NCBI RefSeq assembly: GCF_900105585.1
Contig: NZ_FNRT01000002.1
Coordinates: 2,666,001-2,730,000 of the forward strand
From: Nocardioides exalbidus
GTDB taxonomy: Bacteria; Actinomycetota; Actinomycetes; Propionibacteriales; Nocardioidaceae
DNA: 64,000 nt
Direction of reading: 5' to 3'
The number at the start of each line of letters is the position of its first letter. The first letter of the stretch is position 1. Of the stretch, positions 21,769 through 29,886 are shown in pieces. The notes under the pieces are model-generated. The model was not told where the DNA came from. It saw only the letters and a list, made by a program, of their open reading frames with translations, and made no database searches. Position numbers and translations under genes: made by a program.

Positions 21769-22299
21769 ATGGCCAAGACGTCCGGCAAGGCCTCCAGCGG
21801 GCTCACCTTCGACACCGTCGTCGAGCTGCTGACGATGCTCGACGGCTCCGACCTGCCGACCCGCGTGGTCTACAAGGACGGCCCGCTCCGCCTCGAGGTC
21901 GAGCGCGGCACGGTCCACGCCCCGGTCCCCGCCCCGGCTCCCGCGCCGGCGCTCGTCGCCGCGCCTCCGGCTCCCGCTCCTGCCGCACCGGCTGCCGCTC
22001 CTGCTCCTCCCGCCGCCCCGGTGCACGACGCCCCTGCGGTCGCCGCCGACTCCGAGGGTCGCGGTGAGCCCGTCACCGCTCCGATCGCCGGCGTCTTCTA
22101 CCGCGCGCCCAGCCCGGACGCCCCGGCCTTCGTCGAGGTCGGCCAGCAGGTCTCGGCCGACGACGTCATCGGCATCGTCGAGGTGATGAAGCTGATGAAC
22201 ACCGTCCGTGCGGGCATCACGGGCACGGTCGTCGAGGTCTGCGTCGACAACGCCGAGCTCGTGGAGTTCGAGCAGGTCCTGGTCCGGATCGAGGCCTGA
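21769..22299 (+). CDS. Biotin carboxyl carrier protein (AccB-like)
   Basis: A 176-residue BCCP. The N-terminal AccB-like segment (residues 14-45) is followed by a Pro/Ala linker (50-90) and a biotinyl domain whose target is K141 in VEVMKLMNTV. It carries carboxybiotin between biotin carboxylase and carboxyltransferase. It lies two bases before the carboxyltransferase, with the biotin carboxylase 4.2 kb downstream in the same operon. First gene after the shared promoter. GAGAAGGAG precedes ATG 21769. Confidence 0.94.
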   Translation: MAKTSGKASSGLTFDTVVELLTMLDGSDLPTRVVYKDGPLRLEVERGTVHAPVPAPAPAPALVAAPPAPAPAAPAAAPAPPAAPVHDAPAVAADSEGRGEPVTAPIAGVFYRAPSPDAPAFVEVGQQVSADDVIGIVEVMKLMNTVRAGITGTVVEVCVDNAELVEFEQVLVRIEA

Positions 22300-22301
22300 T
22301 C

Positions 22302-27923: not shown

Positions 27924-29077
27924 CCGTCCCCACCCCCACCGCCGCGCAGCTCGACCTGCAGGCCCGCGCGCGGGAGCTCTCCGAGGTGTTCAAGGAGCGT
28001 GCGACCGAGGTCGACCGCACCGAGGACTACCCGATGCAGAACGCCAAGGAGCTCGCCGCCGCGGGCTTCATGGGCATGACCATCCCGCAGGAGTACGGCG
28101 GCCCCGGCCTGTCGCTGTACGACGTGGTGCTGGTGATCGAGGAGATCGCGAAGGGCTGCGGCGTCTCGGGTCGCATCGTCGTCGACGGCAACCTCGGCGC
28201 GCTGAGCATCATCATGAGGGCGGGCTCGGAGGAGCTGAAGAAGCACGTCGCCGACCTCGTGCTGGGCGGCGACAAGCCGGTCATCCAGATCACCGAGCCG
28301 GCCGGCGGCACCGACGTCAACGCGATGACGACCACCGCCGAGGTCCGCGGCGACACCGTCGTGCTCAACGGCACCAAGACCTGGATCACCGGCGCCAAGG
28401 ACTCCGTCGTCAACGTGGTCGTCGCCAAGCTGGTCGAGGACGGCGAGGACAAGGGTCTGTGCGCGGTCTACTGCGAGCGCGACGACGAGGGCTTCGACCT
28501 CGGCAAGCGCAACTACATGATGGGCCTGCGCGGCATCCCCGAGATGGACGTCCACTTCAACGACCTGGTCGTCCCGCGCTCGAACGTCCTCATGTTCGGC
28601 CTGAAGGACATCATGGGTCGCTACAACAACCAGCGCGTCGGCGCGGCCACGGTCGCGCTCGGCCTCGCCCAGGCGGCGTACGAGGACGCGCTGCACTACA
28701 CGACGCAGCGCCAGCAGTTCGGGCACCCGATCTCCGACTTCCAGGGCCTGCGCTGGAAGCTCGTCGACATGCGCCTGGCGCTCGACGCCTCGCGCCTGCT
28801 GATCCACCGGGCCGCCGCCTCGGCGTCGCTGTCGGAGTCGGGCCTTCCCGACCCCGAGCTCGCCGCGCTCGCCAAGCTGCACGCCGCCGAGAACGCCATC
28901 ACGGTCAGCTCCACCGCGCTGCAGCTGCACGGTGCGCTGGGCTACTCGCGCAACATCCGCGTCGAGCGGCTCTACCGCGACGCGCGCATGTTCACCCTCG
29001 GCGGCGGCACCACCGAGGCGCTGCGCAACCTGATCGGCTCGCAGATCCTCAAGCCCTTCACGTCGGGCGTCTCGTGA
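27920..29077 (+). CDS. Acyl-CoA dehydrogenase, catalytic Glu positions substituted
   Basis: A 385-residue flavoprotein with the ACAD fold: QITEPAGGTDV, TWITGAKDS, the FAD-binding RQQFGHPISDFQ and QLHGALGYSRNIRVERLYRDAR. The usual catalytic Glu in the (Y/I)EGT motif is Gly (GGGT, residues 361-364). The alternative helix-G Glu of isovaleryl-CoA dehydrogenase aligns with Gln (Q238 in YNNQRVGAA). The base must lie elsewhere, or the reaction is atypical. It is coupled by ATGA to the biotin carboxylase. A desaturation that feeds the MaoC hydratase is the plain reading. Confidence 0.88.
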   Translation: MTVPTPTAAQLDLQARARELSEVFKERATEVDRTEDYPMQNAKELAAAGFMGMTIPQEYGGPGLSLYDVVLVIEEIAKGCGVSGRIVVDGNLGALSIIMRAGSEELKKHVADLVLGGDKPVIQITEPAGGTDVNAMTTTAEVRGDTVVLNGTKTWITGAKDSVVNVVVAKLVEDGEDKGLCAVYCERDDEGFDLGKRNYMMGLRGIPEMDVHFNDLVVPRSNVLMFGLKDIMGRYNNQRVGAATVALGLAQAAYEDALHYTTQRQQFGHPISDFQGLRWKLVDMRLALDASRLLIHRAAASASLSESGLPDPELAALAKLHAAENAITVSSTALQLHGALGYSRNIRVERLYRDARMFTLGGGTTEALRNLIGSQILKPFTSGVS

Positions 29078-29886
29078 AGCCCGGCCAGGGCTCCTGGCCG
29101 GCCGACCTCCTCGCCGGTCAGGTTGCCGTCGTCACCGGCGGCGCCTCCGGCCTCGGCCGGTCGACCGCCCTGCGGCTGGCCGAGGCCGGAGTCTCCGCCG
29201 TGGTCGTCGCCGACCTCCGCGAGGACCCGCGCGAGGGCGGGGACCCGACGACGAAGGCCCTCGCCGACCTCGGCGTCCCGTCGGTCTTCGTCCGGTGCGA
29301 CGTCACCTCGCCCGCCTCGATCGAGGAGGCTGTCGCTGCGGCCGACGCGTTCGGTGGCGTCACGATCATGGTCCCGGCCGCGGGCATCCTGCGGATGGAG
29401 GACGTGCTCGAGGTCGGCGAGGCCGACTACGACGCGATGATGGACGTCAACGTCAAGGGCACCTTCTTCTCGTGCCAGGCGGCAGCGCGCTCGATGGTCG
29501 CCGGCGGCCGCGAGGGCGCGATCGTCACGATCTCGTCGGTCGGCGGCGTGCTCGGGTCGGCGTCGATGCCGACCTACAACATCTCCAAGGGCGCCGTCCG
29601 GATGCTCACCTACTCGCTCGCCGCCTCGCTCGGTCCGCGCGGGATCCGCGTGAACGCCGTGCACCCCGGCGTCATCGAGACCGCGATGACCCAGCAGGAC
29701 ACGCACCTCGCCGACGAGCCCGGCACGTCGGTGCCGCTCGGCCGGCTGGGCGTGCCGAACGACGTCGCGGACGCCATCGTCTACCTGGCCAGCCCGTTGT
29801 CGGCGTACACCACGGGCACGTCGCTGTTCGTCGACGGCGGCTCGCACTCCTCCAAGGCCGGACGCGACTTCACGCCCCAGGGCTGA
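29074..29886 (+). CDS. SDR-family NAD(P)-dependent oxidoreductase
   Basis: A 270-residue short-chain dehydrogenase: VVTGGASGLGRST cofactor loop, catalytic Ser (ISSVGG) and YNISK motif, C-terminal VDGGSHSS. The acidic residue after beta-2 (VADLRED) favours NAD. It resembles type-2 3-hydroxyacyl-CoA dehydrogenases, so oxidation of a 3-hydroxyacyl-CoA is likely. GTG 29074 overlaps the stop of the acyl-CoA dehydrogenase (GTGA). Last structural gene before tetR. The usual NNAG appears as VPAAG, a mild divergence. Confidence 0.92.
   Translation: MKPGQGSWPADLLAGQVAVVTGGASGLGRSTALRLAEAGVSAVVVADLREDPREGGDPTTKALADLGVPSVFVRCDVTSPASIEEAVAAADAFGGVTIMVPAAGILRMEDVLEVGEADYDAMMDVNVKGTFFSCQAAARSMVAGGREGAIVTISSVGGVLGSASMPTYNISKGAVRMLTYSLAASLGPRGIRVNAVHPGVIETAMTQQDTHLADEPGTSVPLGRLGVPNDVADAIVYLASPLSAYTTGTSLFVDGGSHSSKAGRDFTPQG

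What the first reader, a model, noticed from the sequence alone, without database searches (positions are those of the whole stretch)
21769..29886. Candidate new biotin-dependent carboxylase pathway (possible ketone carboxylation)
Seen: separate BCCP (K141), HMGL-type carboxyltransferase and biotin carboxylase in one operon with a CaiB CoA-transferase, DUF35/thiolase, acyl-CoA dehydrogenase and SDR. A co-regulated operon next door encodes an acetoacetyl-CoA synthetase and thiolases. Known: HMGL-type carboxyltransferases (pyruvate carboxylase, oxaloacetate decarboxylase, transcarboxylase 5S) act on 2-oxoacid enolates, not acyl-CoAs; acetone and acetophenone carboxylases are unrelated, biotin-independent HyuA/B-type enzymes. 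Inference: this enzyme may carboxylate a ketone to a free 3-oxoacid, which the ligase activates and a thiolase cleaves.
Basis: partly seen in the sequence, partly recalled or inferred. Interest (0 to 1): 0.9.

Follow-up and report, generated by a model that had tools for sequence, protein, structure and literature searches.

The report
Kinase-free biotin ketone carboxylase operon
Three related soil bacteria carry a gene cluster for a three-part biotin enzyme that probably adds CO2 to a ketone so the molecule can be broken down; it resembles a recently proven family but seems to lack that family's phosphate-adding step and has an altered active site.

Summary
The operon is real: BCCP, HMGL-type carboxyltransferase (CT), CaiB, DUF35, thiolase, BC, acyl-CoA-dehydrogenase fold and SDR at 21769-29886, with close CT orthologs in 3 of 215 genomes of the genus. 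The neighbouring ligase/thiolase operon carries the same promoter element. In my tree 34 CTs, including the window's and those of hpe-like clusters, separate from 16 pyruvate/oxaloacetate/transcarboxylase-type CTs (100/100, unrooted) and share a Trp signature (34/34 versus 0/16). CoA-activating genes lie near 19 of 30 of them, versus 0 of 19 canonical places.

What is new: the window CT is a deep branch; the Lys that is carbamylated in pyruvate carboxylase is Tyr181 and one metal His is Asn211; and the three genomes showed no full-length relative of the Hpe-type or PEP-type kinases I tried. Best reading: a biotin carboxylase acting on an unphosphorylated ketone, feeding CoA activation and thiolysis. 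Substrate unknown; nothing was assayed. New variant of a known kind.

The parts
21769..22299 (+). Biotin carboxyl carrier protein, AccB-like, biotin Lys141
   Evidence: Pfam Biotin_lipoyl; NCBIfam TIGR00531 120.8 bits (cut-off 115.2)
22302..23768 (+). HMGL-type carboxyltransferase, ketone-type side of the tree; Tyr181 in place of the carbamylated Lys, Asn211 in place of one metal His; Asp20, Arg90, His213 and Thr350 kept
23794..24996 (+). CaiB-type (class III) CoA-transferase
   Evidence: Pfam CoA_transf_3 369 bits; best NCBIfam model succinyl-CoA:mesaconate CoA-transferase, 276 bits, below its cut-off of 700
25011..25385 (+). DUF35 (ChsH2-type zinc ribbon plus OB fold), likely thiolase partner
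   Evidence: start
25387..26532 (+). SCPx/BbsB-like thiolase with Cys82, His324 and Cys360 motifs
26529..27923 (+). Biotin carboxylase, AccC-like
   Evidence: NCBIfam PRK08591 610 bits (cut-off 597), TIGR00514 585 bits (cut-off 626.5, not reached); EMNTRIQVEH
27920..29077 (+). Acyl-CoA dehydrogenase fold; desulfinase-like, Glu of the usual YEGT motif absent
29074..29886 (+). Short-chain dehydrogenase
29940..30578 (+). TetR regulator (start uncertain)
15346..16599 (+). Acetyl-CoA acetyltransferase-type thiolase, operon 1
   Evidence: NCBIfam PRK07851 594.6 bits (cut-off 580)
16645..18639 (+). Acetoacetate--CoA ligase, operon 1
   Evidence: TIGR01217 694.9 bits (cut-off 520.9); PRK03584 788.7 (639); PDB 4wd1
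18676..19176 (+). MaoC-type hydratase, operon 1
19184..20341 (+). Ltp2-like thiolase-fold protein without the thiolase Cys (GGAS), possible retro-aldolase, operon 1
20338..20811 (+). Second DUF35, operon 1
20804..21598 (+). MBL-fold hydrolase (best solved relative Apyc1), operon 1
15314..15327 (+). Shared promoter palindrome GTGAC-N4-GTCAC upstream of operon 1
21714..21727 (+). Shared promoter palindrome GTGAC-N4-GTCAC upstream of the carboxylase operon

Best explanation
A three-chain, ATP- and biotin-dependent carboxylase (BC loads CO2 on BCCP-biotin; the HMGL-type CT transfers it) carboxylates the alpha carbon of an unphosphorylated ketone to a free 3-oxoacid. The 3-oxoacid is trapped as its CoA ester by the CaiB transferase and/or the acetoacetate-CoA-ligase-type enzyme of the operon with the same promoter element. 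The DUF35/SCPx1 pair then thiolyses it to acetyl-CoA plus a shortened acyl-CoA. The SDR may supply the ketone from an alcohol. Shown by sequence: gene content, conserved motifs of BC, BCCP and thiolase, placement of the CT, shared promoter element, and no full-length match to the two ketone-kinase types for which I had positive controls. Inferred: the reaction, the order of steps and the lack of phosphorylation. Unknown: the substrate. Retained Arg90, the class III CoA-transferase and the desulfinase-like acyl-CoA enzyme lean (weakly) towards a ketone that also carries an acid group, such as a 4-oxoacid.
For: CT tree: 34 ketone-type versus 16 canonical CTs split at 100/100; window plus 2 orthologs plus a Sulfitobacter dubius plasmid CT form one branch on the ketone-type side. 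Trp signature (RD..Q..W): 34 of 34 versus 0 of 16, noticed after the grouping. CoA-activating enzyme within 8 kb: 19 of 30 ketone-type versus 0 of 19 canonical places, p 3e-6; leaving out the five loci that supplied query proteins, 15 of 25 versus 0 of 19, p 1.5e-5. Of the 19, 10 have the 3-oxoacid kinds (acetoacetate-CoA ligase 4, CtfAB 6); the other 9 have only a general AMP-forming ligase. Activator plus thiolase/BKACE: 13 of 30 versus 0 of 19. Ketone carboxylation by a biotin enzyme with this gene setting is proven for HpeCBA (PMC9618137). Kinase-free clusters with the same logic: Cnuibacter plasmid CT-BCCP-BC-BioY-CtfA-CtfB-thiolase and L094. Window: acetoacetate-CoA ligase above two NCBIfam cut-offs, same promoter element on both operons in 3 of 3 species. 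No match to the PEP-type kinase protein in G000, G014 or G121; to HpeH only a 53-residue match in G000 and in G121, none in G014. The same queries score 528-614 bits and 621-627 bits in control genomes.
Against: No activity data. The tree is unrooted: window plus S. dubius lies next to the canonical branch, on long branches (flagged by the tool), and could be its sister. None of my sequences is the assayed HpeB itself; the Hpe group is named from gene context. Arg90, the position that holds pyruvate's carboxylate in pyruvate carboxylase (recalled), is kept here but is Thr in all six Hpe-group CTs. The metal-site changes could mean another reaction. Separate chains are a weak marker: a BC gene lies near 11 and a separate BCCP-like frame near 10 of the 19 canonical places too. 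11 of 30 ketone-type places had no CoA activator within 8 kb, among them the nearest relative outside the genus, S. dubius L034, which had no thiolase either; some of these stretches were cut short by contig ends or by my own cut, L035 and L042 have a candidate just beyond 8 kb, and L040 has a BKACE instead. The desulfinase-like enzyme has no clear place in the scheme.
Confidence: 0.5

Rival explanations
1. A specialised 2-oxoacid carboxylase: the CT still binds a 2-oxoacid through the kept Arg19 and Arg90 and makes a 3-carboxy-2-oxoacid that CaiB then activates.
For: Arg19, Gln23, Arg90 and Thr350 align with residues of pyruvate carboxylase; Thr882 of R. etli, the Thr350 counterpart, is called catalytically essential in PMC5895798 (passages); the numbering match and the roles of the others are recalled. 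CaiB is nearest to a dicarboxylate CoA-transferase model, far below its cut-off. The window branch lies next to the canonical CTs in the unrooted tree.
Against: All 16 canonical CTs keep Lys and His-x-His; the window has Tyr and Asn-x-His. Window CT has the Trp signature absent from the 16. The genome has a separate full-length pyruvate-carboxylase-type frame of 1299 residues. The acetoacetate-CoA ligase and thiolases with the same promoter element point to 3-oxoacids.
Confidence: 0.17
2. A phospho-ketone carboxylase as in the Hpe pathway, with an unrecognised kinase and phosphatase elsewhere in the genome.
For: 12 of 30 ketone-type places have a (putative) kinase of one of three kinds nearby. 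HpeCBA needs the phosphorylated substrate. The literature notes that kinase and carboxylase genes are usually apart: clustered in 52 of 836 cases (PMC13101465, passages).
Against: No full-length HpeH-like or PEP-type kinase protein in the three genomes that carry the operon (controls 97, 98). No kinase or HAD phosphatase among the window genes scanned (the window beyond about 42.6 kb was not scanned). The third type (Tm-1-like) also gave no match, but without a positive control.
Confidence: 0.13
3. The altered metal site marks a CT with another acceptor (acyl-CoA, aldehyde or other enol) or a decarboxylase/transcarboxylase.
For: Lys to Tyr and His to Asn at the metal site; other ketone-type rows vary the Lys position too (Glu 11, Tyr 8 with the window and its two orthologs, Gly 2, Ser 1 of 34), so the chemistry may have diverged. 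CaiB sits between CT and BC.
Against: A BC with its conserved motif is in the operon, so ATP-driven carboxylation is expected. Thr350, Asp20 and His213 are kept. CTs with Glu or Tyr at the Lys position also occur with CoA-transferases, ligases and thiolases.
Confidence: 0.15

Closest known systems
HpeCBA phosphophenylethanone carboxylase (Rhodococcus rhodochrous GD02) and its homologues XccBCA (Aromatoleum EbN1) and the Acv pathway carboxylase (Sphingobium SYK-6)
   Same: BCCP, CT and BC as separate chains; CT on the same side of my tree, judged from hpe-like clusters such as L104 and L039 (the assayed proteins themselves were not at hand); acetoacetate-CoA-ligase-type enzyme and a C-C cleaving enzyme downstream in the pathway
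   Different: No kinase or phosphatase in the operons and no full-length HpeH match in the genome; CT only about 29-37% identical to the Hpe-group CTs; Lys to Tyr and His to Asn at the metal site; Arg90 kept where the Hpe group has Thr; thiolase/DUF35 and CaiB where GD02 has a hydrolase
Pyruvate carboxylase / oxaloacetate decarboxylase alpha / transcarboxylase 5S
   Same: HMGL-type CT with PYC_OADA domain; Asp, one His, Arg and the essential Thr kept
   Different: Lacks the carbamylated Lys and the first metal His; has the Trp signature; separate in the tree (unrooted)
Acetone and acetophenone carboxylases (Acx, Apc)
   Same: Proposed net reaction (ketone plus bicarbonate to 3-oxoacid)
   Different: Apc belongs to another class of ATP-dependent carboxylases/hydrolases (PMC5214803, abstract in a search listing only); here BC, BCCP and an HMGL-type CT
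Benzoylsuccinyl-CoA thiolase BbsAB and Ltp2-ChsH2 aldolase
   Same: SCPx-type protein plus DUF35; among solved structures window SCPx1 is nearest to BbsB (243 bits), SCPx2 to lipid-transfer proteins including 6ok1; the aldolase role of Ltp2 is recalled
   Different: Gene setting and substrate

Membership tests
Hpe-type phosphophenylethanone carboxylase | Three separate chains: BCCP, HMGL-type CT, BC | tested here: met
   a weak marker, since BC and BCCP-like frames also lie near about half of the canonical places
Hpe-type phosphophenylethanone carboxylase | CT inside the Hpe clade | tested here: not met
   six Hpe-group rows form one side of a branch (100/100) that excludes the window
Hpe-type phosphophenylethanone carboxylase | Companion kinase (HpeHI) and phosphatase (HpeD) | tested here: not met
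   none in the two operons; HpeH query gives only a 53-residue match in 2 of 3 genomes, 621-627 bits in controls; HpeI and HpeD were not searched genome-wide
Hpe-type phosphophenylethanone carboxylase | Active-site pattern Lys, His-x-His, Thr at the Arg621 position | tested here: not met
   window Tyr181, Asn211-x-His213, Arg90
Hpe-type phosphophenylethanone carboxylase | Carboxylates 4-phospho-acetophenones | not testable with these tools
   needs assay
Pyruvate carboxylase / oxaloacetate decarboxylase CT | PYC_OADA domain over cut-off | tested here: met
   98 bits, cut-off 27
Pyruvate carboxylase / oxaloacetate decarboxylase CT | Over the cut-off of an NCBIfam pyruvate/oxaloacetate/5S model | tested here: not met
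   best PRK09282 354 bits, cut-off 402
Pyruvate carboxylase / oxaloacetate decarboxylase CT | Carbamylated Lys and His-x-His metal site | tested here: not met
   16 of 16 canonical rows have both
Pyruvate carboxylase / oxaloacetate decarboxylase CT | Groups with canonical CTs | tested here: inconclusive
   canonical rows form their own side of a branch (100/100) but the tree is unrooted and the window lies next to them
Biotin-dependent ketone carboxylase (broad) | Ketone-type CT signature and 3-oxoacid/CoA-activation context | tested here: met
   Trp signature 34/34 versus 0/16; context 19/30 versus 0/19; ligase operon with the same promoter element. These are features I derived here, not a published definition
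Biotin-dependent ketone carboxylase (broad) | Demonstrated ketone carboxylation | not testable with these tools
   needs assay

The most novel reading that the evidence does not exclude
The window enzyme is a distinct class of ketone carboxylase: biotin-dependent, acting directly on an unphosphorylated and probably acid-bearing ketone, with a rebuilt CT metal site in which a tyrosine replaces the carbamylated lysine and an asparagine replaces a histidine. It would be one of several metal-site designs in a wider family of HMGL-type ketone carboxylases that feed 3-oxoacids into CoA metabolism.
Probability: 0.33. Interest if true: 0.85.

Novelty: new variant of a known kind. Interest (0 to 1): 0.62.

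Why it matters
The one biotin ketone carboxylase whose assay I could read, HpeCBA, did not detectably transform the unphosphorylated ketones tested (PMC9618137, passages). A kinase-free relative would remove the phosphorylation and dephosphorylation steps from a CO2-fixing route for ketones, of interest for lignin, terpenoid and solvent degradation. The ketone-type CTs show five residues (Lys, Glu, Tyr, Gly, Ser) at a position that is Lys in all 16 canonical CTs examined, which makes the role of the carbamylated lysine in biotin carboxyl transfer directly testable.

Tried and rejected
Pyruvate carboxylase duplicate: rejected as the plain reading because of the metal-site changes, the Trp signature and the separate full-length enzyme. 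Acyl-CoA carboxylase: the CT is of PYC_OADA/HMGL type, not the acyl-CoA type. DUF35 frame 24914-25333: wrong frame, no Pfam match; the right frame ends at 25385. dN/dS for BC used a wrong frame and is discarded. The genome-contig scan with the CT, which reaches close relatives only, found one locus. The even class sample (394 genomes) gave 13 genomes below E 1e-62, our own included; the best other CT is 38% identical. The phylum sample gave 67 of 396 genomes below E 1e-75, our own included; most listed matches lie in open frames of 547-694 residues, consistent with fused oxaloacetate-decarboxylase-type proteins, a few in frames of 464-516. Of these, 11 were used as canonical controls without checking each one's active-site residues, and none is in the tree. 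Rooting the tree with aldolase-type outgroups was not tried (judged too distant). No structure prediction or fold search was run: homology was already clear. The substrate could not be fixed from context. Searches for a printed biotin ketone carboxylase without phosphorylation showed none in the rows listed; two searches listed only 20 of 97 and 20 of 49 papers, mostly on ketone bodies. The MarK paper, the desulfinase structure paper and the SYK-6 paper are not held, so print outside what I saw is not excluded.
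Full report
Observation. BCCP Lys141 is correct and the BC keeps EMNTRIQVEH. The DUF35 gene is 25011-25385, not the frame I tried first. A TetR gene ends the operon. Directly upstream lies a second operon: thiolase, acetoacetate-CoA ligase, MaoC, an Ltp2-like thiolase-fold protein without the catalytic Cys, a second DUF35 and an MBL-fold hydrolase. 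Close CT orthologs occur in 3 of 215 genomes of the genus, our own included, and the CT evolves under purifying selection (dN/dS 0.16 and 0.23).

Co-regulation. Both promoters carry GTGAC-N4-GTCAC (15314 and 21714). With one mismatch allowed, GTGACANCCGTCAC has these two matches in the window against 0.19 expected; 2 of 100 shuffles had two or more. A longer exact pattern built from the two sites matches twice in the whole genome, at these two promoters, and 0 times in the backward control; by construction it must find them, so the meaningful part is the absence of others. It matches once in G121 and not at all in G014. With the looser palindrome, all six promoters of the three species carry the element, preceded by TATGTTG in five and GTGTTG in one, and it has no other match in the stretches scanned.

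Active site. Aligned with solved structures and with 49 other CTs, the window CT has Tyr181 where pyruvate carboxylase, oxaloacetate decarboxylase and transcarboxylase 5S have the Lys known to be carbamylated, and Asn211 for the first His of His-x-His. Asp20, His213, Gln23, Arg19, Arg90 and Thr350 are kept. Thr350 stands at the position of Thr882 (numbering recalled), called catalytically essential in R. etli pyruvate carboxylase (PMC5895798, passages); the roles of the other residues are recalled. In the 16 canonical rows Lys and both His are invariant. In the 34 ketone-type rows the Lys position is Lys 12, Glu 11, Tyr 8 (window and two orthologs among them), Gly 2, Ser 1; His-x-His is Asn-x-His in 3 (window and orthologs) and His-x-Asn in 5.

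Family. A maximum-likelihood tree of 50 CTs separates 16 canonical from 34 others with 100/100 support. The window, its two orthologs and a Sulfitobacter dubius plasmid CT form one branch (100/97) on the side of the 34, next to the canonical branch. treekit warns that long branches meet there, and the tree is unrooted, so window plus S. dubius could be sister to the canonical CTs. A Trp in RD..Q..W is in 34 of 34 and 0 of 16, in favour of the ketone-type grouping, though I noticed it after the grouping. Six rows form an Hpe group (100/100), named from context: for example Rhodococcus sp. JS3073 (L104) has HpeH-like, HpeI-like, BCCP, BC, CT, HAD phosphatase, acetoacetate-CoA-ligase-type and amidohydrolase genes in order. 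L040 and L041 of this group have a Tm-1-like protein in place of HpeHI. The assayed HpeB was not available to me.

Context statistics. Within 8 kb of 30 ketone-type places (34 rows minus the two window orthologs and two short loci, L054 and L093), a CoA-activating enzyme is found in 19 (acetoacetate-CoA ligase 4, CtfAB 6, only a general AMP-forming ligase 9), a thiolase in 15, a putative ketone kinase in 12, and an activator plus a thiolase or BKACE in 13. In 19 canonical places, 0 of each; a BC gene was near 11 and a separate BCCP-like frame near 10 of these 19, so separate chains are a weak marker. The query proteins came partly from five of the 30 places; without these the count is 15 of 25 versus 0 of 19 (p 1.5e-5). 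Several stretches are short (contig ends or my own cut), and 11 of 30 had no activator, S. dubius L034 among them. 11 of the 19 canonical controls are, taken by match without inspecting residues. The places are not independent: some are from one genus or one contig. Kinase-free examples include Cnuibacter (CT, BCCP, BC, BioY, CtfA, CtfB, thiolase).

Literature. HpeCBA from Rhodococcus rhodochrous GD02 is a biotin-dependent carboxylase of BCCP, CT and BC. It carboxylates 4-phospho-acetovanillone and 4-phospho-acetophenone with one ATP to ADP, and did not detectably transform the unphosphorylated ketones (PMC9618137: abstract, passages and Discussion read). Its homologue XccBCA was earlier implicated in 4-hydroxyacetophenone degradation, as reported there. 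PMC13101465 (passages read) reports the Acv pathway of SYK-6, the MarK kinase, and that kinase and carboxylase genes cluster in only 52 of 836 cases. Searches for a biotin ketone carboxylase without phosphorylation showed none in the rows listed.

Kinase. The PEP-type kinase partner (L037:1607-3184) has no match in G000, G014 or G121; the same query scores 528-614 bits in three control genomes. The HpeH-like query gives only a 53-residue match in G000 and G121 and none in G014, but 621-627 bits in two controls. The Tm-1-like candidate gave no match in five genomes, without a positive control; its role as a kinase is my inference from context. HpeI was not searched.

Mechanism. Best reading: ATP-dependent carboxylation of biotin by BC, transfer by the CT to the alpha carbon of an unphosphorylated ketone, CoA activation of the 3-oxoacid by CaiB or the acetoacetate-CoA ligase, and thiolysis by SCPx1/DUF35. 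The steps are inferred. The retained Arg90, the class III CoA-transferase and the desulfinase-like enzyme hint at an acid-bearing ketone; carboxylating levulinate, for example, would give 3-oxoadipate. That is a guess to be tested. The desulfinase-like enzyme (Gly362 for the Glu of the usual motif; Gln238 and Arg85 aligned with the same residues of 5af7) is the least explained part.

Verdict. The chemistry is not new in kind, because HpeCBA exists. The window represents a deep, apparently kinase-free branch with a rebuilt metal site: a new variant of a known kind. Confidence in ketone carboxylation without phosphorylation is about one half.

Noticed in passing
window 27920-29077: Acyl-CoA-dehydrogenase-fold protein lacks the Glu of the usual YEGT motif (Gly362) and shares Gln and Arg positions with 5af7 (3-sulfinopropionyl-CoA desulfinase, name recalled); it scores below the NCBIfam desulfinase cut-off.
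   Followed up: partly
window 14472-15266: The SDR gene upstream of operon 1 appears frame-shifted near its N-terminus; the matching frames in L003 and L081 look complete. Real change or assembly error is unknown.
   Followed up: partly
L034 (Sulfitobacter dubius plasmid): Nearest CT outside the genus that I found has Asn for the metal Asp and Ser for the Lys, two BCCP-like genes, a citrate-synthase-domain protein and a TRAP transporter.
   Followed up: partly
L084-L087 (G568); L082, L083 (G292): One actinobacterial genome has four ketone-type CTs on four contigs; another has two on one contig.
   Followed up: partly
L037, L100, L038, L088, L089, L098, L099: Ketone-type carboxylases linked to a PPDK/PEP-utilising set including a 525-residue protein without a Pfam match (L037:1607-3184); they may phosphorylate the ketone by a route other than HpeHI.
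   Followed up: partly
L040, L041: Plasmids of Sphingobium yanoikuyae and Pseudomonas putida carry an Hpe-group carboxylase next to a Tm-1-like (UPF0261 in L040) protein and a HAD-type hydrolase; no HpeHI-like gene is annotated in the stretches seen.
   Followed up: no
PMC9618137 and L104: The masses printed for HpeA (57.4 kDa) and HpeB (49.3 kDa) fit a CT and a BC better than the subunit names given, and L104 has the order BCCP-BC-CT; the labels may be swapped.
   Followed up: no
window 7476-13792: Divergent genes for a sulfonate/NMT1-type ABC transporter, a TPP enzyme with below-cut-off resemblance to sulfoacetaldehyde acetyltransferase and acetolactate synthase, and a GlcD-like oxidase flank the operons and have close matches in G121.
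   Followed up: no
L036 (Caballeronia sp. NK8 plasmid): CT-BCCP-BC near an annotated acetoacetate decarboxylase (no Pfam match here), a carbonic anhydrase and a biotin-synthesis gene.
   Followed up: no
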